DNA of 35,627 nucleotides from a virus, in IMG/VR virus record IMGVR_UViG_3300030060_000818, positions 1-35,627 of that record. One strand, 5' to 3'. How positions within the stretch are numbered: position 1 is the stretch's first letter; the number at the start of each line of letters is the position of its first letter. Shown here piece by piece: positions 3 to 34,665 of the stretch. The notes under the pieces were generated by a model that was not told the origin of the DNA, did no database searches, and saw only the letters and a list, made by a program, of their open reading frames with translations. The position numbers were made by a program, and so were the translations under genes.

Positions 3-272
3 GACAAAGTAACCAACAACATGGACGAAGCTGCATTGCAAGCAGAGATCATGAAAAAATTTCAACAGCCCCCTGAAGCACCAACACCTCCTGCAGGAGC
101 AGACGCACAAGACCCAACAGGAGCAGGTGGTGCAACTATAGGTACAGGACAAGTGCCTTTACCACAAGAACAAGGATTTTCAGGAAATGAACAACAACAA
201 CCCACACGACAAGCTACTCAGCCGACTCAAGCCCCTAGTGAACAACAAGGACCAATGGGACAGCTTCAGTGA
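3..272 (+). CDS. Probable portal protein, C-terminal fragment
   Basis: The frame is open to the left edge, so only the last 89 or so residues are present and the true start lies outside. The visible part is a hydrophilic, proline- and glutamine-rich tail, including the stretch GTGQVPLPQEQGFSGN, and has no globular features. Its position just ahead of the virion genes and the style of this tail fit the C-terminus of a podovirus portal protein, the dodecameric ring through which DNA enters the head. That identification is inference from position and composition; no portal core domain can be seen. The last 86 nt are also read in another frame by the next gene. A methionine at 21 is internal to the open frame and is not the natural start. 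Confidence 0.5.
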   Translation, partial: DKVTNNMDEAALQAEIMKKFQQPPEAPTPPAGADAQDPTGAGGATIGTGQVPLPQEQGFSGNEQQQPTRQATQPTQAPSEQQGPMGQLQ

Positions 273-420
273 TTATATAAATTATCTTATAGCACAGAAT
301 CATGCAGTTATGGAGCAAACAAGTGATCTTGTAATGCTTCACAGATCACAAGGTGCTATTATGATGCTCAAGAGACTACGTAAATTAAGGGATGACGTAA
401 ACAATGGGAATATTAAGTAA
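187..420 (+). CDS. Small helical protein between portal and large structural gene
   Basis: This is a 77-residue, mostly helical, charged protein whose C-terminal half (RLRKLRDDVNNG) looks like a short amphipathic helix. It starts inside the portal-like gene in another frame, with AAGGA about ten bases upstream of the ATG. Its end overlaps the start of the next gene by 17 nt. Small genes of this kind often sit just after the portal gene in marine podoviruses, where they are usually left as hypothetical. I do not recognise a family. It could be a small head or connector component, but nothing in the sequence proves that. The reading frame is convincing because the whole length has normal protein composition. 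Confidence 0.6.
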   Translation: MNNNNPHDKLLSRLKPLVNNKDQWDSFSDYINYLIAQNHAVMEQTSDLVMLHRSQGAIMMLKRLRKLRDDVNNGNIK

Positions 421-3400
421 AGGTTTAACTAAACTTTTAAAGCCTGATCCAGACGACTTTATTAGAAAAAGAGAAGAGGAAAAACTTCCTTTTTCTAGAA
501 GAAAAGACGTTGGTCCTTTAGGTGGTCCTTCTAAAAAAGTTACAAACCCTATTGTAAAACCTAGAGTTGATACAACTAAAACTATAACTAGGGATATTGA
601 TTTTGATATAGAAGAACGTTCATCTATTGACAAAGTGTATGGAGATGCAGGTGGTTATAAAGATACTAAAGGCAAAGATTATGTTGTTCCTAAAAAAATA
701 GGAGAGTTTTATAGTCCTGTAAAAGATACGATAGAACAAATGCCTATAGCTAAAGAAGGATCTACAGGACAAACTATTGAAGCATTTTTAAATAAACGAT
801 CACCTAGTGTAACTAAATCTGAATTAGAAAATGCTAGAATAAAATTAGACCCAAATAAAAAGTATCTTAGAGAAGAAATATTAGCACTTGAAAATATACC
901 TGATGCTTATGATATAAGAGTTAGGAGTATGAAGGATGGCAATGTTCTTTTTGATAGGGATCAGAGACAACCAGTATTAGATAGACCAGACGATTACTTT
1001 GAAGTAACAATACATACACCAAAAATAGACCCAGATGTCGAGCAGGTAACTTCAGGGCATTTTCCCACTGGAACTGTAGCTCATATTAGAGCTTCTCGTA
1101 GAAAAGGTGAAGATGGTGAAGATTATATTTTAATAGAAGAAGTACAAAGTGATGCTGCCAGAGCGGCAGGACAAAAATATGAGGACACTGATTACGCAAG
1201 CCCACCAGAATCTGCTGAATTTGAGGAAGCTTTTGGTCCAAGTATATCTACAGACTTCATCTTTGACTTAGATGAAGTGGAGGATATAGGAAAACAAGCT
1301 AAAATAGAGTGGATGAATGATGATTACGAAAAAGCTATTAGTGAAACGATAGATGATTATAACACTGATTTTGGGCTTGGAAATCCTTTTCTTTTCACAG
1401 GAGGATCTTTTGCAGGTGTAAGAGGTTTTTATAGACAGATACACCAAAGATTAAACGATCCTAATTTGTATGATGTTGAGATGGAAAAACCAGAAGATGT
1501 AGCATACTTAAAGGCACAAGATGAAGCATTACGTTTAGACATACAAGGTGAAGACATTCCTGCAGCTTATAATCAGCCTTATAGAGAACTGGGAGAGGGT
1601 CTTATTTCTAGTTATAAAATAAACTTCCCTTCATTAAAAAATGATCCTAAGTTTAACATTTATAATTTTCAAGATAGGAGTGACCCTGATAATGTAAAAT
1701 TAATTCCAGATGGTATTAGAAAAATTCATGCATATGCTATAAAAAAAGATGGACAAGATTTTATAAATAACAGATTATCAAAACGAGCAGGAGAAATGTT
1801 AGATGAAGATCTTTCAGGTAATCTGGATTTAGATGGTGATGACCTTACAGAATTACTAAAAGACGGAACTGTTCAAAAGTATCTTTTAGAAGATAGTCCT
1901 GACCCATTTTTAAAATCTGAATCTATTGAAAAAATAATAAAAAATGTAGAAGATTCTTTGGATACTAAAATACTGCCAGAAGATCGACTGGGCAAAAGTG
2001 AAATATTTGCAAAAGAACAAGTACCCATTACAACAAAAACAGAAACTATGTTGAAAGGCTTACAAGCTAGTATAGTACTAGCTAAAAAGCAAGGGTTAAA
2101 TAAAATAATTATTCCTAGTTATAGGCAATTTGATAAGACAAGAGGGTATGGTGAGCCTTCTGCCGATGAATCTGTATTTAAAGATATGTATGATCAAGCC
2201 TTTAAAAAAGCTTTTAACATTTTAAAAACAGATTCTAAAGGAACTTTAAAATTAGGCAGTAAAAAAATAAAAATTGCAAAAGATGATTATGAGCCTAGCT
2301 CATATGTTAATGATATGCCACATTACGGTGGGGCAGATTTTTATGAAGACTTTGCATATGAGATAGACATATCAAACTTTGAGTTTGATCCAGATAAACA
2401 AGCATTCAGATTTAGTAAGGGAGGAACACTGATGGACGATCAAATGGAACTTTTTAATGAAGGGGGATTACGTGATGAGGGTGGACAAGTAGAACCTGAA
2501 TCAGGTAACAAAGTGCCATCAGGTTCACTAAAAGAAGAAGTAGCTGACGATATACCTGTAATGATGAGTGAGGGTGAGTTTGTCTTTCCTGCTGATGTGG
2601 TACGATTTATTGGTCTTAATACCTTAATGAAGATGCGACAGGATGCAAAGCAAGGTCTAAAGACGATGGAGGAGATGGGACAAATGGGTAACTCAGAAGA
2701 AGCTACCATACCTGATGACGTACCATTTGAAATGGCAGACCTTATTGTAGTATCTGGTGATTCACCAAAGAAGATGCAAAGTGGTGGATTGTTAGATGAC
2801 CCACGTTTTAAAAGACCTACAGGTGGTGACACACCTACCATAACAGATGAAGATAAAAAAGAAATGGAAGATGCATTACTAAGAACTGGTTATGGTAATG
2901 TTGTTATGAAAAGATATGTAAATGCTGATGGTGATGTATTGTATATACCATTTGTTGATGGTGAACCTCAGATGGCTATACCAGAGGGCTATGTTTTAGA
3001 CGAGTCTGCACCAAAACAACAAAGCAGTGTAGGTGGTGGATATACAGATAGTGGTGGAGACAGTGGTGGACCTGCTTCACTTGTACCTACTATTGGTGAT
3101 GGAATGACATTTGAAAAGCCTAAACTAATGGTAGATGGTGTGGAGTATGAAAGCATTGAAAAAATGGATGCTGAAACATTAGTAAAATACTATGAGCAGT
3201 TTAACAGTCCTATATATAGATATGCAGCCACAGGTGCTGCTTTATTCTTTAGCCCCATAGTTGGATTGGCAATAAGTTTAGGACAGTCATATAGTAATAA
3301 AAACTCACCAAATGGTTTAAATGCTGTGCAACAAAGATTAATGACCATGAACCTTACTAAAGAACAAAGAGCTAAAGTAAACAAGGTATATAATGATATT

Positions 3401-4567
3401 AAAAAACGAGGAGCAGGAGGTATATCTAGTTTTGGTAAAACAATTTTTAATGCACTAGGACTAACAAGTGATAAAGAAAAGGGTGAAAAAGAAACTGCAT
3501 TTGAAAAGTTCTTACGAACTGGTAATGTTAAAGGTGCTATAGGAGCAGGTGCAAGTGTAATAGGTGCTAATTCAAAAAATAAAAAGATGTATGATGATGC
3601 TGTTAAACAAGCATTTCCTAGAGAATTATTAGAACAAGAATTTGGATTTGGGTCACAACCAATACCTGATGCTTCAGAAGCAGATTTAGAAAATATGCTA
3701 GGTGTGTCTCAAGATCAAGCTCCAGTGATACCTGATGCTTCAAAGGCAGATTTAGAAAATATGCTAGGTGTGACTACACCTAAACAGGAACTTTATGATA
3801 GAGGATTTGAGCCTAAAGATATGGGAATAGATACTGCTGATGAATCTCTTTATGGTAAAAGATTTAAACCTGAACAGATAGGTGAAGACCCAAGGGCTGA
3901 AGTAATACGAAAAAATAGGCTTAAAGCTATGTCTTTAGTGCCACCAGTGCCTGAAAAGAAAAAGGATGAAGTTGACTTGTATGCACCTGCAATAAAGTCA
4001 CCTGAGTCTATAATACCACCTGTTGATGAAGATTATACAGAGGAGTCTATACGTAGACTTGACAAATCATCAGAAGGTGTACAAGATCTTCTAAGTATTC
4101 AAAAAGATTTAAAAGCCTTAGAAGCAAAAAATAAAAGAGAAGCTGATACTCTGAAAAAGAAGTTGGCTAGTATGGGTACAGATTATGGTAAACAAAGAGT
4201 GCAACAAGATATACAACAGGATGATGATAGAGATGATGGTGGTGCATCTTCAGCTATAGATGATTTTTTTGGTGGAGACTTTGGTCAACCATCTCAGCCA
4301 ACATATGTATCGCAAACAGCAAAAGCTGCAGGATCTGCTAAAACAGGTTTAGGTGCATCAGCTAGTAGACCACAAACATTTGGAGTATCAAGACAAAATG
4401 TACAAGCACCTACATATGACTATGATCAAGCAGGACCATTTTACGTAGGTGGTGTGGCTACTAAACCTATGAAGCCACAGAGATTAAAAAAGGGTGGTTT
4501 AGCTAAATCTAAAGTTAAACCTAAACGAATGAAGAAGGGTGGATTGGCTTCATCACGTAAAAAATAA
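404..4567 (+). CDS. Large 1387-residue probable structural or ejected protein with polyvalent-like modules
   Basis: This is a very large, acidic and lysine-rich protein between the portal and scaffold genes. Around residues 235-256 a strand followed by EEVQSD, and around 549-590 a segment with the pattern of a helix, then KKQGLNKIIIPSYRQFDK, resemble paired motifs of phage large polyvalent-protein associated domains. A second region near residues 700-760 contains MSEGEFVFPADVVRFIGL (721-738) followed by GQMGNSEEA; I recall this block from marine phage structural proteins. Residues about 938-965 form a hydrophobic segment that could cross or enter a membrane. Residues 1087-1101 and 1109-1123 are near-identical tandem repeats. 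The C-terminus carries two KKGGLA units in a basic tail. The start overlaps the preceding gene. The function is unknown; a virion protein that travels with the DNA is my inference. Confidence 0.65.
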   Translation: MGILSKGLTKLLKPDPDDFIRKREEEKLPFSRRKDVGPLGGPSKKVTNPIVKPRVDTTKTITRDIDFDIEERSSIDKVYGDAGGYKDTKGKDYVVPKKIGEFYSPVKDTIEQMPIAKEGSTGQTIEAFLNKRSPSVTKSELENARIKLDPNKKYLREEILALENIPDAYDIRVRSMKDGNVLFDRDQRQPVLDRPDDYFEVTIHTPKIDPDVEQVTSGHFPTGTVAHIRASRRKGEDGEDYILIEEVQSDAARAAGQKYEDTDYASPPESAEFEEAFGPSISTDFIFDLDEVEDIGKQAKIEWMNDDYEKAISETIDDYNTDFGLGNPFLFTGGSFAGVRGFYRQIHQRLNDPNLYDVEMEKPEDVAYLKAQDEALRLDIQGEDIPAAYNQPYRELGEGLISSYKINFPSLKNDPKFNIYNFQDRSDPDNVKLIPDGIRKIHAYAIKKDGQDFINNRLSKRAGEMLDEDLSGNLDLDGDDLTELLKDGTVQKYLLEDSPDPFLKSESIEKIIKNVEDSLDTKILPEDRLGKSEIFAKEQVPITTKTETMLKGLQASIVLAKKQGLNKIIIPSYRQFDKTRGYGEPSADESVFKDMYDQAFKKAFNILKTDSKGTLKLGSKKIKIAKDDYEPSSYVNDMPHYGGADFYEDFAYEIDISNFEFDPDKQAFRFSKGGTLMDDQMELFNEGGLRDEGGQVEPESGNKVPSGSLKEEVADDIPVMMSEGEFVFPADVVRFIGLNTLMKMRQDAKQGLKTMEEMGQMGNSEEATIPDDVPFEMADLIVVSGDSPKKMQSGGLLDDPRFKRPTGGDTPTITDEDKKEMEDALLRTGYGNVVMKRYVNADGDVLYIPFVDGEPQMAIPEGYVLDESAPKQQSSVGGGYTDSGGDSGGPASLVPTIGDGMTFEKPKLMVDGVEYESIEKMDAETLVKYYEQFNSPIYRYAATGAALFFSPIVGLAISLGQSYSNKNSPNGLNAVQQRLMTMNLTKEQRAKVNKVYNDIKKRGAGGISSFGKTIFNALGLTSDKEKGEKETAFEKFLRTGNVKGAIGAGASVIGANSKNKKMYDDAVKQAFPRELLEQEFGFGSQPIPDASEADLENMLGVSQDQAPVIPDASKADLENMLGVTTPKQELYDRGFEPKDMGIDTADESLYGKRFKPEQIGEDPRAEVIRKNRLKAMSLVPPVPEKKKDEVDLYAPAIKSPESIIPPVDEDYTEESIRRLDKSSEGVQDLLSIQKDLKALEAKNKREADTLKKKLASMGTDYGKQRVQQDIQQDDDRDDGGASSAIDDFFGGDFGQPSQPTYVSQTAKAAGSAKTGLGASASRPQTFGVSRQNVQAPTYDYDQAGPFYVGGVATKPMKPQRLKKGGLAKSKVKPKRMKKGGLASSRKK
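3662..3772 (+). repeat. Tandem 45-nt repeat inside the large structural gene
   Basis: Two copies of a 45-nt unit occur at 3662-3706 and 3728-3772, so the period is 66 bp. They differ at only a few bases and encode IPDASEADLENMLGV and IPDASKADLENMLGV. The repeat keeps the reading frame. It looks like a recent in-frame duplication of a short acidic helix, perhaps a binding motif present twice. Confidence 0.85.
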
Positions 4568-4640: not shown

Positions 4641-5516
4641 ATGGCAGAAGCACAAGAAAATGTAATGGTAAAAGATGCAACACCTAAAAAGGTAATGGCA
4701 TTAGCATCTCGTAAGTACTCAAGAGATGAGAAGATTAAAAAAGACGAAGAAGAATTAGAACAACTCATTGCAGAAAATAAAGGTGAGGTAAAGGCAGAAG
4801 CTGAAGAGCAAGAGCCAGAGCCAACTACTGCAGAAGAGAAAACTTTTAAGAAGCGTTATGGTGATCTTAGAAGACACGCACAACAAAAAGAAGCTGATCT
4901 GCAGGAGCAGATAAATCAATTAAGAGATCAACTTGATAGTGCTACTAAAAAACAAATAGAGCTACCAAAGTCGGATGAAGATATTGAAGCGTGGACAAAA
5001 AAGTATCCTGACGTAGCAGGTATAGTAGAAACTATAGCTATTAAAAAATCCAAAGAGCAAGCACAAGAACTTGAATCTAGGATTCAAAAAATAAATGAGA
5101 TGCAGGAATCAGCTACAAAGGAGAAAGCTGAAGTAGAATTATTAAAACTACATCCTGATTTTGTGGACATTCGTGAGGATGATGACTTTCATAACTGGGC
5201 TGAAGAGCAACCACAATGGGTGCAGAAAGCATTATATGAAAATGACAATGATGCACTGTCTGCAGCCAGAGCTATTGATCTTTACAAAGCTGATAAAAAC
5301 ATTGGCAAGAAAAAGACAAGCTCAAAGGATGCAGCATTAGCTACAAATACAAAGTCAACACGCACTAAACCTCAAACTAATGAGGAGTCTACATATCTAA
5401 AGGAATCTCAAGTACAAAAAATGTCATCACAAGAGTATGAGAGAAGAGCCGATGAAGTCATGGAAGCTATACGAAGTGGTAAGTTTGTCTATGATGTGTC
5501 AGGATCAGCAAGATGA
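4641..5516 (+). CDS. Capsid scaffolding protein
   Basis: This is a 291-residue, highly charged, strongly helical protein. Residues about 25-60 are acidic, residues 65-175 are a predicted coiled coil rich in E, K and Q, and the C-terminus is hydrophilic and basic. It lies shortly upstream of the major capsid gene, where scaffold genes sit in T7-like and many other tailed phages. Scaffolds guide assembly of the capsid shell and are lost before DNA packaging. The block LLKLHPDFVDIREDDDF (about 167-183) is reminiscent of marine podovirus scaffolds. The start has AAAGG ten bases upstream. The stop overlaps the next start as ATGA, so the oxygenase downstream is probably translationally coupled. No protease domain is visible, so any processing of the scaffold would need another enzyme. 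Confidence 0.75.
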   Translation: MAEAQENVMVKDATPKKVMALASRKYSRDEKIKKDEEELEQLIAENKGEVKAEAEEQEPEPTTAEEKTFKKRYGDLRRHAQQKEADLQEQINQLRDQLDSATKKQIELPKSDEDIEAWTKKYPDVAGIVETIAIKKSKEQAQELESRIQKINEMQESATKEKAEVELLKLHPDFVDIREDDDFHNWAEEQPQWVQKALYENDNDALSAARAIDLYKADKNIGKKKTSSKDAALATNTKSTRTKPQTNEESTYLKESQVQKMSSQEYERRADEVMEAIRSGKFVYDVSGSAR

Positions 5517-6172
5517 GTATAATATATAAACCACAAAAAGAAATGGAGTTGTTTGCTCCGTTTGGACCTACTATGGGATATTTTCGTATGCCATATGAGT
5601 TGGTTGAAAAGTTAAATAGTAAAATGTCTGATAAGTTAAAATCTTATGCAGATAATCTGGTGGGTAAAGTATCTGAAGAGTTGGCTTTTGATGAAGAGAT
5701 ACTTGCAATAGCACAAAAGGGATTGGGACAATTTGTAGGGCAATATCAAGCTTATACAGATTTTCGTAATTCTATGGGTGTCAAAAAACTTGATACAGAT
5801 AAATTTGACTATGGACTACAAATAGTATCTGGTTGGTTTGTACGTCAATTTGAAAATGAGTACAACCCATTACATATTCACACAGGTTCTCGACTATCTT
5901 GTGTAGGATATTTAAAACTACCAGAGGGAATAGAAGAGGAGTGGGAAGAAGACTATAAAGATCATCATCCTGCAAATGGGCATATACAGTTTGCACATGG
6001 AACATCAGCAGGATATACAGCCACTAACTTTGTTGTAAAGCCAAGAGTGGGTGATTTTTATGTATTTCCATCACATCTTTTTCATTGCGTATATCCTTTT
6101 TACACAAAAGGTGAACGTAGGTCTTTTAGTATGAATATGAACTTTATTGAAGTAGCAAAGAAAATAAGTTGA
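5513..6172 (+). CDS. 2-oxoglutarate/Fe(II)-dependent oxygenase
   Basis: This 219-residue protein has the layout of the putative 2OG-Fe(II) oxygenase family (PF13759-like). The double-stranded beta-helix core lies in the C-terminal half. The likely iron ligands are H121 and H123 in NPLHIHTGSRLS and the distal H191 in VFPSHLFHCVYPF. R202 in GERRSFSMN fits the arginine that binds the 2-oxoglutarate carboxylate. Such enzymes use O2 and 2-oxoglutarate to hydroxylate protein, nucleic acid or small-molecule substrates; the substrate here is unknown. The gene overlaps the scaffold stop by ATGA and lies directly upstream of the capsid leader, an odd place for a metabolic gene. It could modify a virion protein, or it could be an auxiliary metabolic gene carried in the late operon. 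Family assignment is firm; role is not. Confidence 0.8.
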   Translation: MSIIYKPQKEMELFAPFGPTMGYFRMPYELVEKLNSKMSDKLKSYADNLVGKVSEELAFDEEILAIAQKGLGQFVGQYQAYTDFRNSMGVKKLDTDKFDYGLQIVSGWFVRQFENEYNPLHIHTGSRLSCVGYLKLPEGIEEEWEEDYKDHHPANGHIQFAHGTSAGYTATNFVVKPRVGDFYVFPSHLFHCVYPFYTKGERRSFSMNMNFIEVAKKIS

Positions 6173-20004: not shown

Positions 20005-21240
20005 ATGAGTCTACCAAGATTTTTAGGATTAGGTGCAAAAGGAATGGCTGCCAGTTTTCAAGAAGCTTTGGACAGAGAGGATAAAGAGAAAGATAGAGAA
20101 GCCAGATCTGCAGAAGCTGCAGCAGGTAGGCAACATACAACAGATCTATTATATAAAAGAAGAAGATTTGACCAGATGGATAAACTTGTAGAGGTGCAAG
20201 AAGCTTTATTTGCTCTGGGTCTAGATGAAAATCAGGTAGCCGCAAACATGTCAGGTGGCATGGCTAATGTAGAAAGACTACAAAATCTAAAAACAATTTC
20301 TGCTGATAACAATATAGACTTTCCCTCTGCATTAAATGTTACCTTTGGAGAAAACTTTAACGCAGAAGATATAGAGGGTGGTGCTGTAAACTTTGTTCAG
20401 AGTAACTTATTAGACGCAAGACTAGAGGGCAAGGTATATAAGAATCCATACAGAACAGAAATATCTGACCAACTTAAAGCATTAGAATCTATAGGTGATC
20501 CTGTAGGATTTAAAAAGCAAATAGAAAATCAATATAACTCAATATACCGTCTTGAACAACTGATAGATAAAGGTACAAACGTAGAACAAAATCAGAAGTT
20601 AGTAAATCAGAAAAGAGATTTGATTACAGAGCTAACAAAGAAGTATGTTGAGATGGAACAGACAACAGGTAATACAGGCTTGTTGACATCAGGATACATG
20701 TCTCTAGCACTACGTAAAGTAAAAGATGCTAAGAAAGGTGCATTTGGAGAGCTTATAGTTACTGATAATATAGGTAGAGTCCAGAAAAAATTTACAGGTA
20801 ACTATGGCAGAGCATTTGAAGCTTATCTAACAAGTATAGATGGAATAAAAAATGAGATACAAGCATACAGTCCTGATAACCCAAATGCAATTAGTGGTGG
20901 TAGTGCCGCTTTCATGAATGAACTTACTTTGAATGCTAATACACAGCTAATAAACGAATATAATTTAGAATATCTTCAAAGGATAAGACTAGGTGCAGAA
21001 AGAGATCGTACCCTTACAACACAAGATAGTCGAAAACCAATGGAAATAAGTCTATTAAATCCACTGTCTGATACGCAAAAAAACAAACTAAAGGCAGGGG
21101 ATGTTGTAAAGCACATAGTTAATAATCAACCAGTGTATGAAATATTTAGAGGTTTTGCAGAGCCTAATCAATCAAACCCTACAGGCATACAATTCTTTAG
21201 AAAACTAGATACGCTTGAAATATATAATCCACAACAATGA
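20005..21240 (+). CDS. Putative internal virion (ejection) protein
   Basis: This 411-residue protein is mostly helical and charged at the N-terminus (about 15-70, ALDREDKEKDREARSAEAAA) and mixed afterwards. Its C-terminal third has short beta segments (about 345-405). The start is one base after the previous stop and its end overlaps the next gene as ATGA. Proteins of this size ahead of a giant final virion protein resemble T7 gp14-gp15 in arrangement, although no homology can be shown by eye. It most likely belongs to the ejected inner core. Confidence 0.55.
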   Translation: MSLPRFLGLGAKGMAASFQEALDREDKEKDREARSAEAAAGRQHTTDLLYKRRRFDQMDKLVEVQEALFALGLDENQVAANMSGGMANVERLQNLKTISADNNIDFPSALNVTFGENFNAEDIEGGAVNFVQSNLLDARLEGKVYKNPYRTEISDQLKALESIGDPVGFKKQIENQYNSIYRLEQLIDKGTNVEQNQKLVNQKRDLITELTKKYVEMEQTTGNTGLLTSGYMSLALRKVKDAKKGAFGELIVTDNIGRVQKKFTGNYGRAFEAYLTSIDGIKNEIQAYSPDNPNAISGGSAAFMNELTLNANTQLINEYNLEYLQRIRLGAERDRTLTTQDSRKPMEISLLNPLSDTQKNKLKAGDVVKHIVNNQPVYEIFRGFAEPNQSNPTGIQFFRKLDTLEIYNPQQ

Positions 21241-24200
21241 ACCAACAACAGCAAAAACAAAATGATGACTACATAGCGAGTATTCTAAGTGGTGATGTTT
21301 CTCAGCAACAGGACTCAGAGCCACGGCTATCATTGCCTGTAGAATCACAGTTCACAAGAGGGCAGAGTAATGACGAATATATAGCTAGTATAATAGAAGG
21401 AGAGTCTACTGGGAATGAACTCAACGATATGGGTGTAACTCCACAAGACACTATGGGTGATCATGCCCAAATAGATCCCACAAAAACTACAACAGAACAG
21501 AAGACAGAGTTTGCTCCTGAAGGTGAGAAGTGGGGCTATGGTGACTATGTAGAAGATATAACAAAGGGTTTAATAAGAGGTGTGCCTAGTGCCATAGCTG
21601 AATTGACTCAGACTGTTGCCGACATAGATGAATGGAGAAAAAACTATACAGGCACATTGGTTATGCAAGACAAAGGTAAAAAAGGTTTTCAAATTTCTGA
21701 TCTATTTCAAATACCAGACTATGTGTCTGGTGAGGAGTATGTAAAATTAAAGGAACAATATGGTGATGAAATTAAAAATTCAAGCTTATTATATATGACA
21801 TCAAATAAAATTGATGAGCTTACAGATGATGCTATTACAGGAATAGGATCTCTATCAGAAGACCTAGGTATAAAGTTAGACAGGTTTGAAACACCTGATA
21901 CTGAGTCAGTTATTGGTGGAATTACAGAGGGTGGAATACAGTTTGCAACAGGATTTGGAATTACAGGCAAACTAACAAAGCTAGGTGGCTATGGGTATAA
22001 AAATTTATTTCTAAAAGAAGCTATAGTTGGTGCAACATTCTTTGATCCAGAAGAAGCACTGCTGACAGATGCTATTGCTTATAGCATAGATAATCTTGGT
22101 GATGCTAGTGGATATTATACTTCAAATCTAGCAGAATATATAGCGAGACAAGAAGATGACAGCTTACTTGTAAAAAGATTAAAAGGTGCAGGAGAAGGTG
22201 TATTATTTGGAGTCCCATTAACATATGCAGGGGACAAGATAGGCAAAGTATTTGCAGGAATTAAAAATAAAAAGATAGCCATAGAAGATGCTAAACTAGA
22301 GCAGAAGAAGACAGGCAAAGTATCTAACGAAACTATGGAACGTATAGATGCAAATGGCAAAATCATAGAAGAGGATGCAGCAGAAGTTGAAGAGATAATA
22401 GCTAACGCAAAGCCTGACAAAAAAACTATAAAGAAAGCAAAGAAGATTAGTGAGAATGTACAGAAAATAAAGGCAAAGCAGACAGAGGTAAAGCAAAAGA
22501 AAGTAAATGCAAACAAAAAGGTTGTGAAGTCAGAAGTAAAAATACACAACGAACTGGTAGAGGAGTTTGAAGATAATCTAGGCATAAACAAAGACTTTAT
22601 CAGGGGAGATAGTGGGTATATAACAATAACCACGGTCAAGGGTGGCAAGAGAATACTAGACCCAACAAAGTTAGAAGCTGCCAAGAATTTATCTGTACAA
22701 AAGATAGATGAAGTTGACACTGCAAACAGTAAGTTAGCAACCAGACAAGACCCAAAGATGCCCCAAAGTATATATATAGAAAAAGGGGTAGAGGACAAGT
22801 ATGATATAAGCGAATTGTTTGATAGAGTTTTAAAGGTTGAAAACATTGAAGCTCTCACAGTTGTAGCTAAAGAACTAAGAGATGCCAATCCTAGTATGTG
22901 GAAAGACAAAAAGAAGATAACTATCAGAGATCAGAAAACTGGTAAGAAGAGAAGAGTTACAGTAAAGAAGTCAGTTATGGAAAATATATTTGACTCTGTG
23001 ACCAGAGGAGACTTGACACTGCGTGGGGATCATCCTCTGTTTGATGCACTAGACAAGGCAGGTATGTCCTTTGAAGACTTCACTCTTATGCATCTAGGCT
23101 CTGCAAGTCAGGCAGGTAAGATACTAAATAAGTATTCACAGTTAGCCAAGAGAGTAAAGCCAAAGAGTCAGAAGCAACAAGATGAGTTAGATGAAATGTT
23201 AAGGAATCAGAACAGAACTGCTCAGTGGTTTAGAAGAGTAGAGAATGTAAGACGTGGTCTTCTTGTGTCTCAGATAGCAACTGCTGCCAGAAACTTAGAG
23301 TCAGGTCTACTCCGTACTCCTGTAGAAGCATTAAATAACATAGTAGAAACAGCCACTATGGATATAGCCAATGGTAATTTTTTTAGTGGTAAGAATAGAC
23401 TAATAAAGAAAACTACATGGACTGATAGCTTTGCAGGTATGCGATACATATACTCTGACAGAAAGACAGCAAAAGAATTTACAGATATTTTATTAGGTGA
23501 TCCTGATAATCCAGATCTGGTAGCCCACCCAAAGCTACAAGATTTTTCTGATAGAATGTTTAACACAATCAACGAGATACAACTAGCAACAGGCAGAGGT
23601 AGTGATACTACATTTGATAAGCTTATATCAAAGGCAGAAGACTTTACACAGTTACTTAACAGACCAAATCGTTGGCAAGACTTTATGCTAAGACGTGGTA
23701 TATTTATGGGTGAAGCACAACGTCTGTTCAGAGATAAGTGGGATATAGATCTAATAGAGGTGCTAAACGGTGGCAGACTAGATGATCTGATGAATGATGC
23801 TAGAGATCTTAATCCTACTTTCAAGGTGGTAGATGGCAAAGATCAATTAGGTATAACAGCAACAGAGATATTTGCAGAAGCTACTGAAAGAGCCTTAGAC
23901 TTAACTTATGCTAACCCACCTGAGTCACCATTTGGTAAAGCTTTTGCTAACTTCATAACAAAAAACAATCTTACAGTAATCATACCGTTCCCTAGATTTA
24001 TGGCAAAGAGTATGGAACTTATGGCTGAGAACTCTGTAGGTGCTTTCCTGCCTTGGACAAGAAGAATATATGGTCTTACAGGATATGGAGCAAAGAGATT
24101 TGGAGATAAGTTCACTCCAAGAGAGCATCGCATGATAGCACGTAATGCAACAGGTGCATTGGGTGTTATGGCTGCATCAATGATGTTACAAGAGACTGAC

Positions 24201-25400
24201 CAACAAGGAGAGGACTATAAACTTGTGCCTGTAGGTGACGGTACAGTCCTAGATGTGACACCACTATTTCCTCTTAGACAGTTCTTCTTCTTGGGCAAAA
24301 TATTAAATGAATACTATAGAGCTTCTGAGCAGACTGATTGGCTATCAGGTGGTAAAGAAGCATTCTTTCAGACATTTGATAGAAGAGAGTGGGCTGAGAC
24401 ATTCCTAGGAACTAGCTTCAGAACTGGTGTGGCAGGTAATCTGGTAGATGAAGCTGCATCTTTGTTCAATGAGCAGGACTTAACCAACGATGAATGGTGG
24501 GGAAGAAACTCAGGACAGATATTAGGAGATTACTTATCTACATTTGCCGTGCCTTTGAATCAGGTGCTAGATACACAAAGAGCATTAGGCATGAGAGGGG
24601 TTGCATACAAAGAGACAGCCAAAGATCCTGAGATTGTGAGTGGCACAGATGCATTCATAGAGGGCTTTGTTAAGCCATTTAGAAAGTATGATCCTTTTGG
24701 AGCAGTGGTAGACGAGAGTGCATTGCCTAAAAAAGAAGATCCTTTTCAAGAGGAAAGAAGACGTGTTGCACCACTAGCCAAGGTTGCATTAGGTCTTAAC
24801 ATGTACACTGCTGATAGTGAAGAGGGTAAAAAATTAAAGTCTTTGGGATTTGATAAGTGGGATGTGAGCAGTAGATCTAGAATACCAACCGTAAGAAACT
24901 TTGAGAACAAGTCAATTAGAGAGAACTTACCATCCATAGTAGAGGAAGCCACTGAACTAGAAGCATTATGGGGTAACATGTATGATGCTAATCAAAGAGA
25001 GCTATCTCAGATAGGTGGTGGTAGAATACTTGGGCTGATAGATACAGGTATCAGCAAAGAAAAATACATAAAAGATAATGTGAAGAAATATATTAAAGAT
25101 CAGATAGATCTTTTTAGAAATCCAACTGATAGTCTCGTGGCACTAGATGATCCACAAAAGATATTAGAGTATCAGTCTATGACTGACTACAGAAGACTAT
25201 CAAAGAATCAGAGGTCAAAGGGATGGTTTAGATTTGTGGAAGAAGAGGAAAGATCTCCCTTTGATTTTTCAAGTGAATATCTAGAGAGACAGTTTCCTGA
25301 TCTTGAGAATTTTAGTGAAGATGATAGACAGCAAGCTTTGAAGAATCTAAAGCTACAAGACCTACAATTACTTTTTCTCTATGGGAAAGAGTCTCCGTAG
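21237..25400 (+). CDS. Large ejection protein (gp16-like in position)
   Basis: This 1387-residue protein is the last gene of the rightward arm, as is usual for the largest internal virion protein of T7-like phages. Its N-terminus has two copies of a short motif, NDDYIASILSG (9-19) and NDEYIASIIEG (45-55). Residues about 340-440 form a lysine-rich coiled coil. The rest is helical with glycine-containing hydrophobic stretches, for example near 970-985 (NATGALGVMAASMMLQE). I see no lysozyme or transglycosylase signature in it, unlike T7 gp16. It probably forms part of the channel that carries DNA across the cell envelope. The 3' end overlaps a leftward gene by 33 bp. Confidence 0.65.
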   Translation: MNQQQQKQNDDYIASILSGDVSQQQDSEPRLSLPVESQFTRGQSNDEYIASIIEGESTGNELNDMGVTPQDTMGDHAQIDPTKTTTEQKTEFAPEGEKWGYGDYVEDITKGLIRGVPSAIAELTQTVADIDEWRKNYTGTLVMQDKGKKGFQISDLFQIPDYVSGEEYVKLKEQYGDEIKNSSLLYMTSNKIDELTDDAITGIGSLSEDLGIKLDRFETPDTESVIGGITEGGIQFATGFGITGKLTKLGGYGYKNLFLKEAIVGATFFDPEEALLTDAIAYSIDNLGDASGYYTSNLAEYIARQEDDSLLVKRLKGAGEGVLFGVPLTYAGDKIGKVFAGIKNKKIAIEDAKLEQKKTGKVSNETMERIDANGKIIEEDAAEVEEIIANAKPDKKTIKKAKKISENVQKIKAKQTEVKQKKVNANKKVVKSEVKIHNELVEEFEDNLGINKDFIRGDSGYITITTVKGGKRILDPTKLEAAKNLSVQKIDEVDTANSKLATRQDPKMPQSIYIEKGVEDKYDISELFDRVLKVENIEALTVVAKELRDANPSMWKDKKKITIRDQKTGKKRRVTVKKSVMENIFDSVTRGDLTLRGDHPLFDALDKAGMSFEDFTLMHLGSASQAGKILNKYSQLAKRVKPKSQKQQDELDEMLRNQNRTAQWFRRVENVRRGLLVSQIATAARNLESGLLRTPVEALNNIVETATMDIANGNFFSGKNRLIKKTTWTDSFAGMRYIYSDRKTAKEFTDILLGDPDNPDLVAHPKLQDFSDRMFNTINEIQLATGRGSDTTFDKLISKAEDFTQLLNRPNRWQDFMLRRGIFMGEAQRLFRDKWDIDLIEVLNGGRLDDLMNDARDLNPTFKVVDGKDQLGITATEIFAEATERALDLTYANPPESPFGKAFANFITKNNLTVIIPFPRFMAKSMELMAENSVGAFLPWTRRIYGLTGYGAKRFGDKFTPREHRMIARNATGALGVMAASMMLQETDQQGEDYKLVPVGDGTVLDVTPLFPLRQFFFLGKILNEYYRASEQTDWLSGGKEAFFQTFDRREWAETFLGTSFRTGVAGNLVDEAASLFNEQDLTNDEWWGRNSGQILGDYLSTFAVPLNQVLDTQRALGMRGVAYKETAKDPEIVSGTDAFIEGFVKPFRKYDPFGAVVDESALPKKEDPFQEERRRVAPLAKVALGLNMYTADSEEGKKLKSLGFDKWDVSSRSRIPTVRNFENKSIRENLPSIVEEATELEALWGNMYDANQRELSQIGGGRILGLIDTGISKEKYIKDNVKKYIKDQIDLFRNPTDSLVALDDPQKILEYQSMTDYRRLSKNQRSKGWFRFVEEEERSPFDFSSEYLERQFPDLENFSEDDRQQALKNLKLQDLQLLFLYGKESP

Positions 25401-25738: not shown

Positions 25739-27625
25739 CTACGCTCCTATGTCCACTATCTCACAACTGTCACCTGAACAGGCAAGTGTTTGTGAGGAAT
25801 GAGTATTATCTTCTTCTTCATAACTTTGAAACTTATCCCAATCAATATGAGTGAACTTACTGCTAAAATCATTGTATACAGCTTCTGTACAGTCCTGATA
25901 TGGTGCTTGTTGATAAGTATGATCGGAGTGTGGTAAGAAAGAAACACCTGACATCTCGTCAAAGTGTTTAAACACAAATGCTCCCACTTCCATCCATTCA
26001 TCATCACGTACTGATATAGTAACAGAAGGTTTATGCTCACACCAATGTCTCTGGTAGAGAAGCCACATCTCTAGCTGTTCGATAGCTGTCATGTCATTTC
26101 TAACTACTGACTTCTTTGGTGACTTCATTGGAAAGCTGAACACCATGTTTGTATCAGGCTTCATAACATCAGGCTCACTAGGTATGCCACTGTCAATCAT
26201 GAAGTTAGTAAGAGGATCTTTATTATCCCCCCTAACAGTGCGAATATAATAACTGCTATGACGAGGGTGGATACCAGAACTTGAGTCCACGAGTTGTGAT
26301 ACTGTTCCACTTGGTTTGACACATGTGATAGCAGTGCTTTGGGGTATTCCAAAGATTGCTGACCACTCTTTGTTTGTTTCAACTGCGATCTCTCTGAGTG
26401 CTGAGAGGGTTTTTTCAAGCCCATGTTTTCTCCCATTTGTTAATTCATTATCCATAATACCTGTAAGGCTCACACCAAGAAGTCTTTCTTCTTCAGTATT
26501 ACTCTGCCATATCTTTCGTAGGTATGGAAACTTAGTGAGTGTAGCCTGTGCTGTGCCAAGTATAGTGGCAAGCATAACCTTTCGCTTCAGATCTTCAAAC
26601 TTATCCTTCTCTCGTATAACAACCTCTGTAAGATTGCAGAACTGATAAGGTCTAAGGATGATTTCACTGCAAGGGTTACAGCCAAACTCATGATTGGCAT
26701 CTCTTCTGCCAAACTTCTTTGCTTGTTCCTTTGCTGATATTCTATTAAATATACCACGTTCACCTGACTTAGATTCCACAAGAGATGTCCACTCACGTAG
26801 GAATGTTTCCCCATCAGGCTTATCTGTATACACAACAGAGTTATTTGATAGTGCCATCTGTGGTGCAGTCTCCCACCACTTGCCTGACTTGGCATGTCTC
26901 ATTCGTTGGTCTGAGAGGTTAGACAAACTGATCATGGCAGATCTACGTACACCACCAGAGACTACAACTTCCCCAACCTTACACATTAGATTATGGCAGT
27001 CATAGCTAGACAGCTTCTTGCCTTCATTCTGTCTGAATAAAGCTACAGTAAAATTAAATAGATCAATGAGAGGAGCAGGACCACTTGCTCTACCACCAAA
27101 CACTTTGAGTCTAGCACCTGCAGGTCTTACCTTTGACATGTCCCATACAGGAACTTCACCCATATACAGGTGTCCTATCAGCTTACGTAAGGCTCTTGCC
27201 CAACCTTCTTTGCTGTCCTGTACCTGTATGCATGTGTCCACATGATCTAGCTTTTGTGGTATCTCTGGTAGCTGTAGCACGTACTGTCTTTCTACAGAGA
27301 AGCCAACACCAGTGCCACACAAAAGAATATACATAGCTTCATCAAAAGCTTTTGGATCATCAACAGGAAGATAGCTACAGTTGTATCCTGCTGTATTGTC
27401 TCTCTCAAGGGCAGGACCTGCTGTCATCAAGGCTCTCATAGAGGGCATAACCTCTAGGTTCTTTATAGCTTCAAAGATCTGTTGCTTCGGCAAATGACCT
27501 TTCACTTTCTCAGTGATATAGTCCACATATCTCTGCACAGTTTCATCCCATGTTTCTCTTCTGTTCTCTTCGTCAATCCATCTAGCATATCTAGATATTG
27601 CAATAAATTTTTGATAGTCGTTCAT
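25739..27625 (-). CDS. nrdJ: Ribonucleotide reductase, class II (adenosylcobalamin-dependent), monomeric type
   Basis: This enzyme reduces ribonucleotides to deoxyribonucleotides using coenzyme B12, needs no oxygen and no second subunit, and supplies dNTPs for phage replication. The 628 residues match the Lactobacillus leichmannii-type enzyme, which acts on triphosphates and is about 110 residues longer. The redox cysteines are C83 (YNCSYLP) and C330 (QFCNLTE). The thiyl-radical cysteine is C319 in GCNPCSEI, with N317 and E321 beside it. The C-terminal shuttle pair is C616 and C621. The spacings C319-C330 and C616-C621 equal those of the known enzyme. The gene follows a 53-residue gene, which ends one base before its ATG, and is the last large gene of the leftward operon. 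The host must make or import cobalamin. Confidence 0.9.
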   Translation of the reverse strand: MNDYQKFIAISRYARWIDEENRRETWDETVQRYVDYITEKVKGHLPKQQIFEAIKNLEVMPSMRALMTAGPALERDNTAGYNCSYLPVDDPKAFDEAMYILLCGTGVGFSVERQYVLQLPEIPQKLDHVDTCIQVQDSKEGWARALRKLIGHLYMGEVPVWDMSKVRPAGARLKVFGGRASGPAPLIDLFNFTVALFRQNEGKKLSSYDCHNLMCKVGEVVVSGGVRRSAMISLSNLSDQRMRHAKSGKWWETAPQMALSNNSVVYTDKPDGETFLREWTSLVESKSGERGIFNRISAKEQAKKFGRRDANHEFGCNPCSEIILRPYQFCNLTEVVIREKDKFEDLKRKVMLATILGTAQATLTKFPYLRKIWQSNTEEERLLGVSLTGIMDNELTNGRKHGLEKTLSALREIAVETNKEWSAIFGIPQSTAITCVKPSGTVSQLVDSSSGIHPRHSSYYIRTVRGDNKDPLTNFMIDSGIPSEPDVMKPDTNMVFSFPMKSPKKSVVRNDMTAIEQLEMWLLYQRHWCEHKPSVTISVRDDEWMEVGAFVFKHFDEMSGVSFLPHSDHTYQQAPYQDCTEAVYNDFSSKFTHIDWDKFQSYEEEDNTHSSQTLACSGDSCEIVDIGA

Positions 27626-28078: not shown

Positions 28079-28447
28079 TCATGCACTCCCATTTAGTTTA
28101 TTTTTCATTGCTCTGAAGTCTACCTTAATTACATTACCTTGTCTACCAGTAATTGCAACTGGTGGCTTTTCTTTTGGTTCTTCCATCTCTGATCTAACAA
28201 TCTCATATACTTTCCTAGCATGATCCTCATCCGATCTAAGTAAGTCAATACTTACGAGTGTCATACGAGCAAAGAACATAATCTCACTAAAGTCCCTATC
28301 GGACAGAGGGTTTGCTACTGAATCTATAACTTGTAAGTTAACATCCCCTGTCCAGTTATTCTGGTGATCTAATATGGGTTGCATTCTTATTAGAATATCT
28401 TGGTCATCTAATTTAAAATGTAAATCTTTAAATCCGTCTTGTGTCAT
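28079..28447 (-). CDS. Hypothetical replication-cluster protein
   Basis: This 122-residue protein has a strong AAGGAG ribosome binding site seven bases before the ATG and an ATGA overlap with the endonuclease gene. The N-terminal half is beta-rich (DLHFKLDDQDILIRM). A central helical part (about 55-90) follows, then a basic C-terminal tail with GRQGNVIKVDFRAM. I do not recognise a family. It is co-translated with genes of recombination and nucleotide supply, which suggests a helper role. Confidence 0.65.
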   Translation of the reverse strand: MTQDGFKDLHFKLDDQDILIRMQPILDHQNNWTGDVNLQVIDSVANPLSDRDFSEIMFFARMTLVSIDLLRSDEDHARKVYEIVRSEMEEPKEKPPVAITGRQGNVIKVDFRAMKNKLNGSA

Positions 28448-28908
28448 TTAAAACTCCTTATAATCTTTTTCCTTGGAAACTCTATGAGTTCAGGGAGTGG
28501 TTTCTTTTTACGTTCTTTAAGCCAAGGTTCTGGTATGACTCTGTCATGGTACAAGAACTTGTTCTTCTCACACCAATCTCCATAGCTAGTCTTAGAACCT
28601 TTCTTAATCTTTCTTTTACTACTTGTAAACACAAAACGTATGTCTAACTTGGGGTGCTGTTTCTTAATACATATGTGCTTTCTTCTGTCCTCTACAGTGA
28701 AGAGTCCTTTGGTTTCTATTATGATACCATTAGGTAGCACAAAGTCAGGTGTGTAATGTCTATAAGCCAAGTCTTCCCACTCTATCTTGATGCCCTCGTA
28801 AATATATTTTACTTTTAGTTCATCAAGAAACTCTGAGAGCTTTACTTCTAGCCCACTACGATAGCCTAACTTACGTGCTACCTTATACTGTTTAGAAGTG
28901 TATAACAC
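28444..28908 (-). CDS. Endonuclease I, Holliday junction resolvase (T7 gp3-like)
   Basis: This 154-residue protein closely matches T7 endonuclease I (Phage_endo_I) in length and motifs. It resolves branched DNA such as Holliday junctions and helps break down host DNA. The catalytic residues expected from T7 (E20, D55, E65, K67) are E21, D55, E65 and K67 here, within SGLEVKL, TPDFVLPNG and IIIETKG. The blocks DRRKHICIKKQHPKLDIRFV and TSYGDWCEK are also conserved. It starts at a GTG directly after the stop of the preceding gene. The weak start and lack of a clear ribosome binding site suggest low expression coupled to the upstream gene. Confidence 0.92.
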   Translation of the reverse strand: MLYTSKQYKVARKLGYRSGLEVKLSEFLDELKVKYIYEGIKIEWEDLAYRHYTPDFVLPNGIIIETKGLFTVEDRRKHICIKKQHPKLDIRFVFTSSKRKIKKGSKTSYGDWCEKNKFLYHDRVIPEPWLKERKKKPLPELIEFPRKKIIRSFK

Positions 28909-32960: not shown

Positions 32961-33445
32961 TTGTCTTCCTTTAGTTGAACCAGTTCAGCTTCCTGATAGG
33001 GTATGTGAAAGAAGTATTCATACCTTCTTGCATTAGATAAGTATATCTCTTGCACAGTTTCAGGTGTAAACTGATAATCTTTTATTCTCCATGCACACTG
33101 CATGTCACCTCTTATAACATAAAAATTAAAGAATGCATCTTTTTTATTCATCTCTTTAAACTTATTTAATAATTTAAATTTACGATAGGGAATCCTAATC
33201 TCTTTCCAAGATGGTAGCCAATCCCCAAACCATTGTCTCTTCATCTCAACCTCTGAGTAGTATGTGTTACCATTCTTCTCACTCTTGATATCAAAAGAAT
33301 AATCTTCTTCAGTAGATAAGATAGTGTGTCCGTTGTTAACTAAGTAACCTGACACTGCATCTTTAGCTACACCATCATTCTTGGCATACGAGTAGGGTCT
33401 AAACTTCCTAGTGTATGCACCTTTAATAGGCTTAAATGTATTCAT
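32957..33445 (-). CDS. Putative PD-(D/E)XK nuclease-like protein
   Basis: This 162-residue protein has D52 in YSFDI, then E67 and K69 in YSEVEMKRQW. The D...ExK spacing across two strands is that of the PD-(D/E)XK nuclease fold, and an N-terminal helix (about 25-38) precedes it as in many members. The rest (FFNFYVIRGDMQCAWRI) is beta-rich. It overlaps the helicase gene and the polymerase gene by ATGA on each side. It could be a small repair or branch nuclease. The family call rests only on these residues and predicted strands, so it is moderate. Confidence 0.5.
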   Translation of the reverse strand: MNTFKPIKGAYTRKFRPYSYAKNDGVAKDAVSGYLVNNGHTILSTEEDYSFDIKSEKNGNTYYSEVEMKRQWFGDWLPSWKEIRIPYRKFKLLNKFKEMNKKDAFFNFYVIRGDMQCAWRIKDYQFTPETVQEIYLSNARRYEYFFHIPYQEAELVQLKEDK

Positions 33446-34665
33446 GCTGTGTACCTCGCTGTCTTGTAGTCTAGTTCACAGACAATCTTGCCATGCCAAC
33501 CAGATAGTTTGTTCTTTACAACGTTGATATGTCTCTGAGGACTTTGCTCCTCTTCACCTTCAACGTCAGGGTTCTTGGCAAGTAGTAGCATAAGGTCAGC
33601 TTCTGCTGCCTTACCAGTTCTACTACCTTCCATCATGGCTTGGTTAAGTATAACCTTGCCCTCTGCTTCTGCAGATAGCTGTGACATATAGAATATAGCA
33701 CAACCATACTGCTTGGCAATCATTCTTGCATGGACTGCATTTGCTTTGAGTGCTTCATCTTGCCTAGCAAATCCTGCCGTCTTGGCAAACTTATCACCCA
33801 TGTCTAACACAACGACATCAGGCTTAAAAGATTTAGCAATGCTCTCAACCCAAGACATATCACGTCCTGTAGAGTCATACAATTTTATATTCTCCTTAAC
33901 TGCACCATACTTCTCATGGGCAAGCTTGGGATTATCTTTGATCTCGTATTGATTCATGTTAGAACTGGCAGTCAGGTATCGCATGCCCACTCTATGCACT
34001 GACTCTTCGTTACATAGAACAACACACTTAGCACCTTGTCTGGCAAAGCCATTGTCACCTGCAATCATAGATGCATGAAAAGATGTTTTACCTGTGTTGG
34101 GTCTAGCTCCAACTTCGATCAAGTGTCCTTCATTTACACCTTCTATCTTGCGTGTGAGACTAGGTATGTTGAATGCCCAACGTGCTTCCATGTCATTCCT
34201 TGCAAGAAGGTTCTCAATAGAGATGTCAGCCCACTCTATATTCATAGTAGGTATGAAGTCATCACCGTACTGCTCTAGCATATTACGGAGTGGCTCAAGG
34301 CTAGTCTGTGAACCATTTACATAATCAAATCCAAGATTTGCTATCTCTTCCCCAACTACCTGTTGGAATAATTTGGATAACACTTCTTGTGCTATGTCAT
34401 TACCAAGAGGGGACTCCTTCTTGATACGTGAGAACAGATCACCATAGGCTTGCTTCTGTGCTGTTGTAAGAGTAGGATTGTTTGACATAAACAATACCTC
34501 TACCTCATCAGGTGTTACTGTTCTGTTGTACGTCTTCATAGCATAGTCAACAGAGTTTTTTATCTTTCGCATATCCTTACTAAATAATTTGTCAGGACAA
34601 CGAATACCTCTATGATCATCATAGAAGTCTTTAGTCATAAGACTACGTATTAATGCTTGTTCCAT
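33442..34665 (-). CDS. Replicative helicase, DnaB/gp4-like RecA-fold ATPase
   Basis: This 407-residue protein is a hexameric-type 5'-3' helicase that unwinds DNA ahead of the polymerase. Walker A is GARPNTGKTS (186-195) with K193 and T194. The catalytic glutamate is probably E220 in LCNEES. Walker B is VVVLD with D288, and Q329 in YMSQLS is the sensor glutamine. GSRTGKAAEADLMLLL (347-362) fits the arginine-finger region. The N-terminal 150 residues are helical, like DnaB N-terminal parts. In T7 helicase and primase are one protein; here they are two genes that overlap by 23 nt. A good GGAGAAG ribosome binding site precedes the ATG. Confidence 0.88.
   Translation of the reverse strand: MEQALIRSLMTKDFYDDHRGIRCPDKLFSKDMRKIKNSVDYAMKTYNRTVTPDEVEVLFMSNNPTLTTAQKQAYGDLFSRIKKESPLGNDIAQEVLSKLFQQVVGEEIANLGFDYVNGSQTSLEPLRNMLEQYGDDFIPTMNIEWADISIENLLARNDMEARWAFNIPSLTRKIEGVNEGHLIEVGARPNTGKTSFHASMIAGDNGFARQGAKCVVLCNEESVHRVGMRYLTASSNMNQYEIKDNPKLAHEKYGAVKENIKLYDSTGRDMSWVESIAKSFKPDVVVLDMGDKFAKTAGFARQDEALKANAVHARMIAKQYGCAIFYMSQLSAEAEGKVILNQAMMEGSRTGKAAEADLMLLLAKNPDVEGEEEQSPQRHINVVKNKLSGWHGKIVCELDYKTARYTA

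What the first reader, a model, noticed from the sequence alone, without database searches (positions are those of the whole stretch)
404..4567. Giant protein that seems to join polyvalent-protein modules to a virion block
The N-terminal half has EEVQSD and a later helix-strand block typical of phage polyvalent-protein associated domains, normally found in very large proteins injected with DNA. The C-terminal half has the MSEGEFV block, a hydrophobic segment and basic KKGGLA repeats. It sits between portal and scaffold, an unusual place for an effector. It may be a capsid-packaged protein that acts in the host early after DNA entry.
Basis: partly seen in the sequence, partly recalled or inferred. 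Interest (0 to 1): 0.6.

Follow-up and report, generated by a model that had tools for sequence, protein, structure and literature searches.

The report
Phage protein with swappable effector domain
In an abundant type of ocean phage, one gene next to the portal gene joins a fixed, tape-measure-like segment to a front domain that differs between relatives (wall-cutting enzymes, methyltransferases, toxin-like domains, or here an acetyltransferase-like fold), which looks like a swappable cargo slot probably carried in the virus particle and sent into the host with the DNA.

Summary
The ORF at 404-4567 (1387 aa) is real and lies between the portal end and a scaffold-like gene of an HMO-2011-type podovirus fragment. 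Two AlphaFold2 models point to a GNAT-like fold with a large insert but no conserved acetyl-CoA loop motif. Only the MSEGEFV block (about 100 aa, dN/dS 0.08-0.11) is conserved in all relatives; it resembles a segment of tail tape-measure proteins. The N-terminal part is a swap slot: absent in close relatives (portal 92-95% identical), or replaced by SleB or lysozyme hydrolases, LPD23, ART, methyltransferase or other domains. The EEVQSD module also occurs as a separate gene in the same place. In cultured pelagiphage HTVC028P a family member sits inside the internal-virion-protein cassette. Best reading: a polyvalent-type, probably virion-packaged and ejected protein. Packaging, ejection and enzymatic activity are inferred; I found no proteomics.

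The parts
404..4567 (+). Whole gene: N-terminal EEVQSD module fused to the SEGEFV core (1387 aa)
   Evidence: 98% identical gene in L005, 90% in L018
404..685 (+). Residues 1-94, N-terminal stretch starting MGILSK; poorly conserved between relatives apart from the first residues
   Evidence: A5 alignment, dN/dS 0.5-1.4
686..2440 (+). Residues 95-679, EE(I/V)QSD-family module, predicted GNAT-like fold
   Evidence: hhalign 97.7% E 1.6e-12, 94.1% when masked; models and PDB comparison
1136..1153 (+). EEVQSD motif, residues 245-250, on the strand matching GNAT beta-4
   Evidence: E, E, Q and D invariant in A7; model strand at residues 240-248
1184..1993 (+). Variable, mostly helical insert, residues about 261-530, absent in the compact relatives L235-L239 and L241
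   Evidence: low pLDDT in part; dN/dS 0.51-0.75
2024..2116 (+). Helix-strand block, residues 541-571 (PITTKTETMLKGLQASIVLAKKQGLNKIIIP), matching GNAT alpha-3/beta-5
2189..2191 (+). Tyr 596, invariant in both families, on predicted alpha-4
   Evidence: (Y502 of the first row)
2408..2431 (+). Module joint RFSKGGTL, residues 669-676
   Evidence: GG in 47 of 53 module/core joints against 0.225 background per 22 aa
2432..2773 (+). SEGEFV core block, residues 677-790, the only part shared by all relatives; tape-measure-like
3224..3280 (+). Hydrophobic segment, residues 941-959
   Evidence: Kyte-Doolittle mean 1.8
4487..4549 (+). C-terminal basic tail with two KKGGLA repeats
   Evidence: 53 of 74 complete relatives have GG(L/M/I/A/V) in their last 25 aa
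3..272 (+). C-terminus of the portal protein (gene cut by the window start)
   Evidence: complete in L005 3003-5162
187..420 (+). Small ORF (77 aa) between portal and this gene, conserved in nearly all loci
4641..5516 (+). Scaffold-like gene downstream
   Evidence: phrog_13678 E 2e-66; position before the P22-type coat

Best explanation
The gene encodes a phage polyvalent-type protein with two jobs. The SEGEFV core, always encoded between portal and scaffold and resembling a tape-measure segment, puts the protein in the virion, probably inside the head near the portal, and lets it leave with the DNA (inferred). The N-terminal module is cargo in a swappable slot. Here it is an EE(I/V)QSD-family domain with a predicted GNAT-like fold, which most likely modifies or binds a host component just after entry (inferred). 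Shown here: the modular anatomy, module swapping with conserved flanks, fusion and fission of the module, homology of the module to polyvalent-protein domains, the predicted fold, purifying selection. Inferred: packaging, ejection, catalytic activity, target.
For: Same place in 14 phage records and 80+ contigs. Slot swapping: L019/L020 portals 94.5/91.6% identical without a module; L219 flanks 94-97% identical with a module only 50.9% identical. Slot contents: SleB, lysozymes, LPD23, ART-PolyVal, methyltransferases. Module homologous to the EEIQSDWHQ family, masked and shuffled controls passed, whose members carry ART-PolyVal, LPD38, LPD39. Module fused or as a separate gene in the same place. 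GNAT-like fold in two models. Core block hits tape-measure PHROGs, reversed controls do not. Family member in the internal-virion-protein cassette of HTVC028P. Purifying selection.
Against: No proteomic or ejection data. Tape-measure similarity covers only about 50 aa and is weak for single sequences (E 1e-5 at best; 0.02 for the window's own block). No named polyvalent Pfam domain in the window protein itself. Acetyl-CoA loop motif not conserved. The slot is empty in many relatives, so the module is dispensable. Foldseek alone finds no significant PDB match.
Confidence: 0.62

Rival explanations
1. The protein is a virion-assembly or structural factor (head, neck or DNA-retention protein) that stays in the particle or acts only at the envelope; the variable front parts are accessory domains, not cytoplasmic effectors.
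For: Conserved core between portal and scaffold; tape-measure-like block; peptidoglycan hydrolases in the slot of some relatives act at the envelope.
Against: Methyltransferase, ART and LPD23 domains in the same slot make little sense at the envelope; the module's relatives travel with ART domains.
Confidence: 0.2
2. The protein is a non-virion enzyme made late in infection; its gene sits in the virion block only because late genes are a tolerant place for insertions.
For: Other non-structural genes sit in the same late block, such as the 2OG-Fe(II) oxygenase at 5513-6172 and methyltransferases in CRP-345 and CRP-13.
Against: The core block itself is never lost, is under the strongest purifying selection of the protein and resembles tape-measure and 'virion structural' families; wall hydrolases are fused to it.
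Confidence: 0.13
3. The module has a GNAT-like fold but is not an enzyme: it serves as a binding or DNA-contact domain, or is a remnant.
For: No conserved acetyl-CoA loop motif; the insert evolves nearly freely, dN/dS 0.51-0.75.
Against: Two Glu, Gln, Asp, two His, Arg and Tyr are invariant across both families; the conserved parts are under purifying selection, 0.26-0.48. This rival concerns the module only and is compatible with the delivery part of the best explanation.
Confidence: 0.3

Closest known systems
Phage polyvalent proteins (Iyer et al. 2017, PMC5512222)
   Same: Large multi-domain protein encoded among virion genes of a portal-terminase phage; its module belongs to a family fused elsewhere to ART-PolyVal, LPD38, LPD39; slot relatives carry LPD23 and ART-PolyVal.
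   Different: The fixed part is the SEGEFV tape-measure-like block, not MuF or portal; the window module has no Pfam model; the whole gene works as one slot with exchangeable contents within a single phage group.
Head proteins with exchangeable C-terminal effectors (MuF proteins) and injected enzymes such as T4 Alt (as described in PMC5512222)
   Same: Fixed virion part plus variable enzymatic part.
   Different: No MuF similarity found; the variable part is N-terminal; virion presence not shown here.
T7-type ejection proteins gp14, gp15, gp16 (PMC8954989)
   Same: HTVC028P gp34, a family member, lies in the internal-virion-protein cassette; hydrolase domains are reported to swap between ejection proteins.
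   Different: No sequence similarity to gp14, gp15 or gp16 was shown; in the window the gene lies between portal and scaffold.
Tail tape-measure proteins (phrog_3547, 5448, 6090)
   Same: Share a segment of about 50 aa around DDIPxxLSEGE(F/Y)V.
   Different: Found here in a podovirus with no long tail; the rest of the protein is unrelated.
GNAT acyltransferases
   Same: Predicted fold, Glu on beta-4 and Tyr on alpha-4.
   Different: Large insert after beta-4; no conserved (Q/R)xxGx(G/A) loop; no Pfam GNAT hit; activity untested.

Membership tests
Phage polyvalent protein | Several unrelated domains in one large polypeptide | tested here: met
   EEVQSD module plus SEGEFV core plus hydrophobic and basic C-terminal parts; modules occur apart in relatives
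Phage polyvalent protein | A domain linked by fusion to the polyvalent repertoire (ART, LPDs) | tested here: met
   By homology: EEIQSDWHQ relatives fused to ART-PolyVal, LPD38, LPD39
Phage polyvalent protein | A named polyvalent Pfam domain (LPD, ART-PolyVal) in the window protein itself | tested here: inconclusive
   No Pfam hit at E<=1 except SiaC 0.11; not all LPDs have Pfam models, and the published class is not defined by Pfam alone
Phage polyvalent protein | Encoded among virion genes of a portal-terminase phage | tested here: met
   Between portal and scaffold/coat in all loci where flanks are present
Phage polyvalent protein | Packaged in the virion and transferred to the host | not testable with these tools
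   No proteomics found
EE(I/V)QSD domain family (unnamed, no Pfam model) | Profile similarity beyond the motif | tested here: met
   97.7% E 1.6e-12; 94.1% E 1.2e-7 with motif masked; shuffles 0.1-0.2%
GNAT superfamily | GNAT fold | tested here: met
   Predicted only: nearly all VIA-align rows for two models are GNAT entries, best Z 8.1 and 10.1; Foldseek E-values not significant
GNAT superfamily | Acetyl-CoA loop motif (Q/R)xxGx(G/A) after beta-4 | tested here: not met
   No such conserved columns in A5; hence filed as GNAT-like fold, not as an acetyltransferase
T7-type ejection protein | Homology to, or operon with, gp14/gp15/gp16 | tested here: inconclusive
   A family member lies in that cassette in HTVC028P; the window gene does not, and no direct similarity was tested
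Tape-measure protein | Long coiled protein that sets the length of a long tail | tested here: not met
   Only a segment of about 50 aa is shared; HMO-2011-type phages are podoviruses

The most novel reading that the evidence does not exclude
HMO-2011-type ocean phages carry a polymorphic effector-delivery slot: a tape-measure-like SEGEFV core with GG-punctuated joints carries interchangeable front domains into the host, and one of these, the EE(I/V)QSD domain, is a widespread, previously unrecognised GNAT-like host-modifying family with a non-standard cofactor site.
Probability: 0.35. Interest if true: 0.8.

Novelty: new variant of a known kind. Interest (0 to 1): 0.6.

Why it matters
HMO-2011-type phages are a dominant and broadly distributed marine virus group (PMC9038755), and their annotated genomes call this gene only 'hypothetical protein'. 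If the reading is right, it names the cargo slot of these phages, gives a marker block (SEGEFV) for finding their likely injected proteins, and gives a predicted fold to a domain family found in many phage polyvalent proteins but missing from Pfam. Cultured relatives exist, so it can be tested directly.

Tried and rejected
Pfam and PHROG scans of the window protein gave nothing usable (SiaC E 0.11 and phrog_777 E 0.11 taken as chance). tblastn of residues 173-689 against cultured phages found nothing at E 10, nor did the L097 module; iteration through IMG/VR loci was needed. 'LPD domain in the window protein itself' was dropped for lack of a Pfam hit. 'Chance motif match' was rejected by masking and shuffling. 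'Tape-measure hits reflect only length or composition' was rejected because reversed blocks give none. The HMO-2011 and CRP papers searched gave no proteomics of this gene. Fusion of a SEGEFV block with the EEIQSDWHQ gene outside HMO-type phages: none among 120 loci; only L103 and L213 have a GEFV-type gene next to it. Foldseek alone gave no PDB match at E<=0.001 for either model. No model coordinates were available, so I could not check that the invariant residues cluster in space.

Full report
WHAT IS THERE. The window is a 35.6-kb IMG/VR virus record. The ORF at 404-4567 encodes 1387 aa. Upstream is the C-terminus of the portal protein, complete in the near-identical contig L005. Downstream are a scaffold-like gene (phrog_13678), a 2OG-Fe(II) oxygenase and a P22-type coat gene. 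Relatives in cultured phages are HMO-2011 and the Roseobacter CRP phages, in the same place and annotated 'hypothetical protein'.

ONE CONSERVED BLOCK, ONE VARIABLE SLOT. In the known phages essentially only the SEGEFV block and its near surroundings align. In HMO-2011, CRP-1 and L007 the gene starts at this block. A search with the block (A1) returned 80 further loci. Of 82 genes measured, 53 carry an N-terminal extension of more than 30 aa, up to 1,115 aa, and 29 carry none. The extensions fall into many different kinds. Pfam recognises LPD23 (4 members, best E 5.8e-7), Hydrolase_2/SleB (2, 4.9e-16), Phage_lysozyme2 (2, 1.1e-18), Phage_lysozyme (1, 3.8e-5), Methyltransf_23 (3, 1.6e-7), ART-PolyVal (2, 3.4e-4), DUF7178 (2) and Phage_L5_gp82 (6). 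The flanks stay put while the slot changes. L019 and L020 have portals 94.5% and 91.6% identical to that of the window lineage but no module and no separate gene. L219 has portal 95.7%, core block 94.1%, scaffold 96.6% and coat 96.6% identity, but its module is only 50.9% identical. The core block is the most constrained part of the protein (dN/dS 0.083 and 0.109 against L018 and L219), the conserved parts of the N-module come next (0.26-0.48), and the insert and C-terminus are the loosest.

WHAT THE N-TERMINAL MODULE IS. Iterating from L018, L097 and L026 gave 26 loci with the module and alignment A5 of 17. In some loci the module is fused to the core (window, L005, L018, L219-L222, L229-L231). 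In the others it is a separate gene directly after the portal and before the core (L223-L228, L232-L241), for example L224, where the module gene ends at 4956 and the core gene starts at 4953. Fusion and fission of the same pair support a shared function. A compact 395-413 aa form (L235-L239, L241) lacks the large insert. The motif resembles EEIQSDWHQ, which I remembered as common in phage polyvalent proteins; a pattern scan gave 120 loci and alignment A6 of 47. Profile-profile comparison of A5 and A6 gave 97.7%, E 1.6e-12 over residues 102-256. With the motif columns masked it still gave 94.1%, E 1.2e-7, from the YSP...TREE region alone, and five column shuffles gave 0.1-0.2%. The joint alignment A7 is colinear to the end of the domain, with E200, H219, H227, R229, E245, E246, Q248, D250, P541, Y596 and G673 (window numbering) invariant in all 32 sequences. 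The masked test supports homology only for the N-terminal part; the C-terminal colinearity rests on the alignment. Of ten long EEIQSDWHQ proteins scanned, six carry ART-PolyVal at E<=1.5e-6 and one more weakly, one carries LPD38, and others LPD39 or DUF7178. PHROGs file 42 of 47 under phrog_7348, named 'endolysin', a name that probably comes from another domain of those long proteins. Pfam has no model for the domain.

FOLD. AlphaFold2 on A7 gave a window model with mean pLDDT 65 but about 80-93 in the core elements. On A9 it gave a model of the relative L107 with mean pLDDT 87.5 and pTM 0.83. Foldseek alone had no PDB match at E<=0.001. VIA-align of Foldseek's candidates gave lists made almost wholly of GNAT-fold entries for both models (ICL2 C-terminal domain, HAT1, NatD, AAC(2'), Eco2, phage Mu Mom and others), best Z 8.1 for the window model (rmsd 3.7, 145 aligned) and 10.1 for L107 (rmsd 3.2, 135 aligned). 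Single Z values under 8 can be common arrangements, but the uniformity of both lists and the order of the elements argue for a GNAT-like core. The two models are not fully independent, as A7 contains members of the A6 family. EEVQSD lies on the strand corresponding to beta-4, where several GNATs carry a catalytic Glu, and the invariant Tyr lies on alpha-4, where many carry a catalytic Tyr (established knowledge; positions from the model). The acetyl-CoA loop motif is not conserved, so acetyltransferase activity is not claimed. The closest viral models are large uncultured-phage proteins, some named 'ART-PolyVal-like' or 'Large polyvalent protein associated domain-containing'.

THE CORE BLOCK AND DELIVERY. 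Nine of ten block sequences hit tape-measure PHROGs, best 1e-5 for phrog_3547, and eight hit phrog_8003, 'virion structural protein'. Five reversed blocks hit none of these. The window's own block is weak (best 0.024). tblastn of one block lists many annotated tape-measure genes in unrelated phages, each weak (E 0.01-10). Tape-measure proteins occupy the tail lumen and leave it during DNA entry (established knowledge), so a shared segment fits a protein on the DNA exit path. Two further placements of the module family agree. In the cultured pelagiphage HTVC028P, gp34 (family member, 100%, E 2.7e-43) lies between 'putative internal protein A' and 'putative internal virion protein', a cassette like that of the T7-type ejection proteins (PMC8954989). 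In the uncultured myovirus ct7L0027 the family member follows a head-to-tail connecting protein gene and an M15 peptidase gene. Peptidoglycan hydrolases in the HMO slot also fit particle-borne proteins.

HOW IT MOST LIKELY WORKS. Made late, held in the particle through the SEGEFV core (inferred), ejected with or before the DNA (inferred), the protein delivers whatever its N-terminal slot carries: wall hydrolases for envelope passage in some phages, host-modifying enzymes in others. In the window the cargo is the GNAT-like EEVQSD module. Its target is unknown; a host protein or nucleic acid modified early in infection is the leading guess because the same domain family travels with ART domains.

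KNOWN OR NEW. Phage polyvalent proteins near virion genes, with some domains fused to MuF or portal, are known (PMC5512222), and that paper reports GNATs next to ARTs; whether those GNATs include the EE(I/V)QSD family could not be checked. New here, as far as the tools show: the SEGEFV-anchored slot in HMO-2011-type phages, the resemblance of its core to tape-measure proteins, and the GNAT-like prediction for the EE(I/V)QSD family. I rate it a new variant of a known kind.

Noticed in passing
window 2408-2431 and 4487-4549; loci L019-L098: Module joints and C-termini are punctuated by a GG motif: 47 of 53 module/core joints have GG (typically F(N/S)(K/E)GGxxM), most core proteins end K(K/R)GGLA(S)xK, standalone modules end RFNRGGLVA. 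Cleavage site, packaging tag or recombination joint is unknown.
   Followed up: partly
window 187-420: A small ORF of about 70 aa (MDKxxLxKLKxLVxNxxQW...) is conserved between portal and the core gene in nearly all loci.
   Followed up: no
L061, L080, L091, L094, L095, L017 between portal and core gene: Separate genes of 518-1217 aa replace the fused module here; several end in KGGLI or KGGMI. They look like further unidentified cargo genes.
   Followed up: partly
window 21237-25400: A second 1387-aa protein with no Pfam or PHROG match; by size and position after the tail genes it may be the large internal virion protein of this phage.
   Followed up: no
window 5513-6172: A 2OG-Fe(II) oxygenase gene (phrog_81, 1.1e-26) lies between scaffold-like and coat genes; relatives have methyltransferase or HNH-type genes near here, so this may be a second insertion spot.
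   Followed up: no
L213 3-473 (and L103 13176-13916): In a different phage lineage a gene ending in DDGYAALQDGEFVIK(R/K)DAVKRYG, like the SEGEFV block, overlaps the start of an EEIQSDWHQ gene by a few bases.
   Followed up: partly
window 35427-35627, minus strand: The open frame at the window end (TGHTNVQSVKPYMKHTY) reads like the C-terminus of a tyrosine integrase; HMO-2011-type subgroups are reported to carry one. Not tested by profile.
   Followed up: no
window 25739-27625, 28444-28908, 33442-34665, minus strand: Class II ribonucleotide reductase, T7-type endonuclease I and DnaB-type helicase genes on the opposite strand, as expected for this phage group.
   Followed up: no
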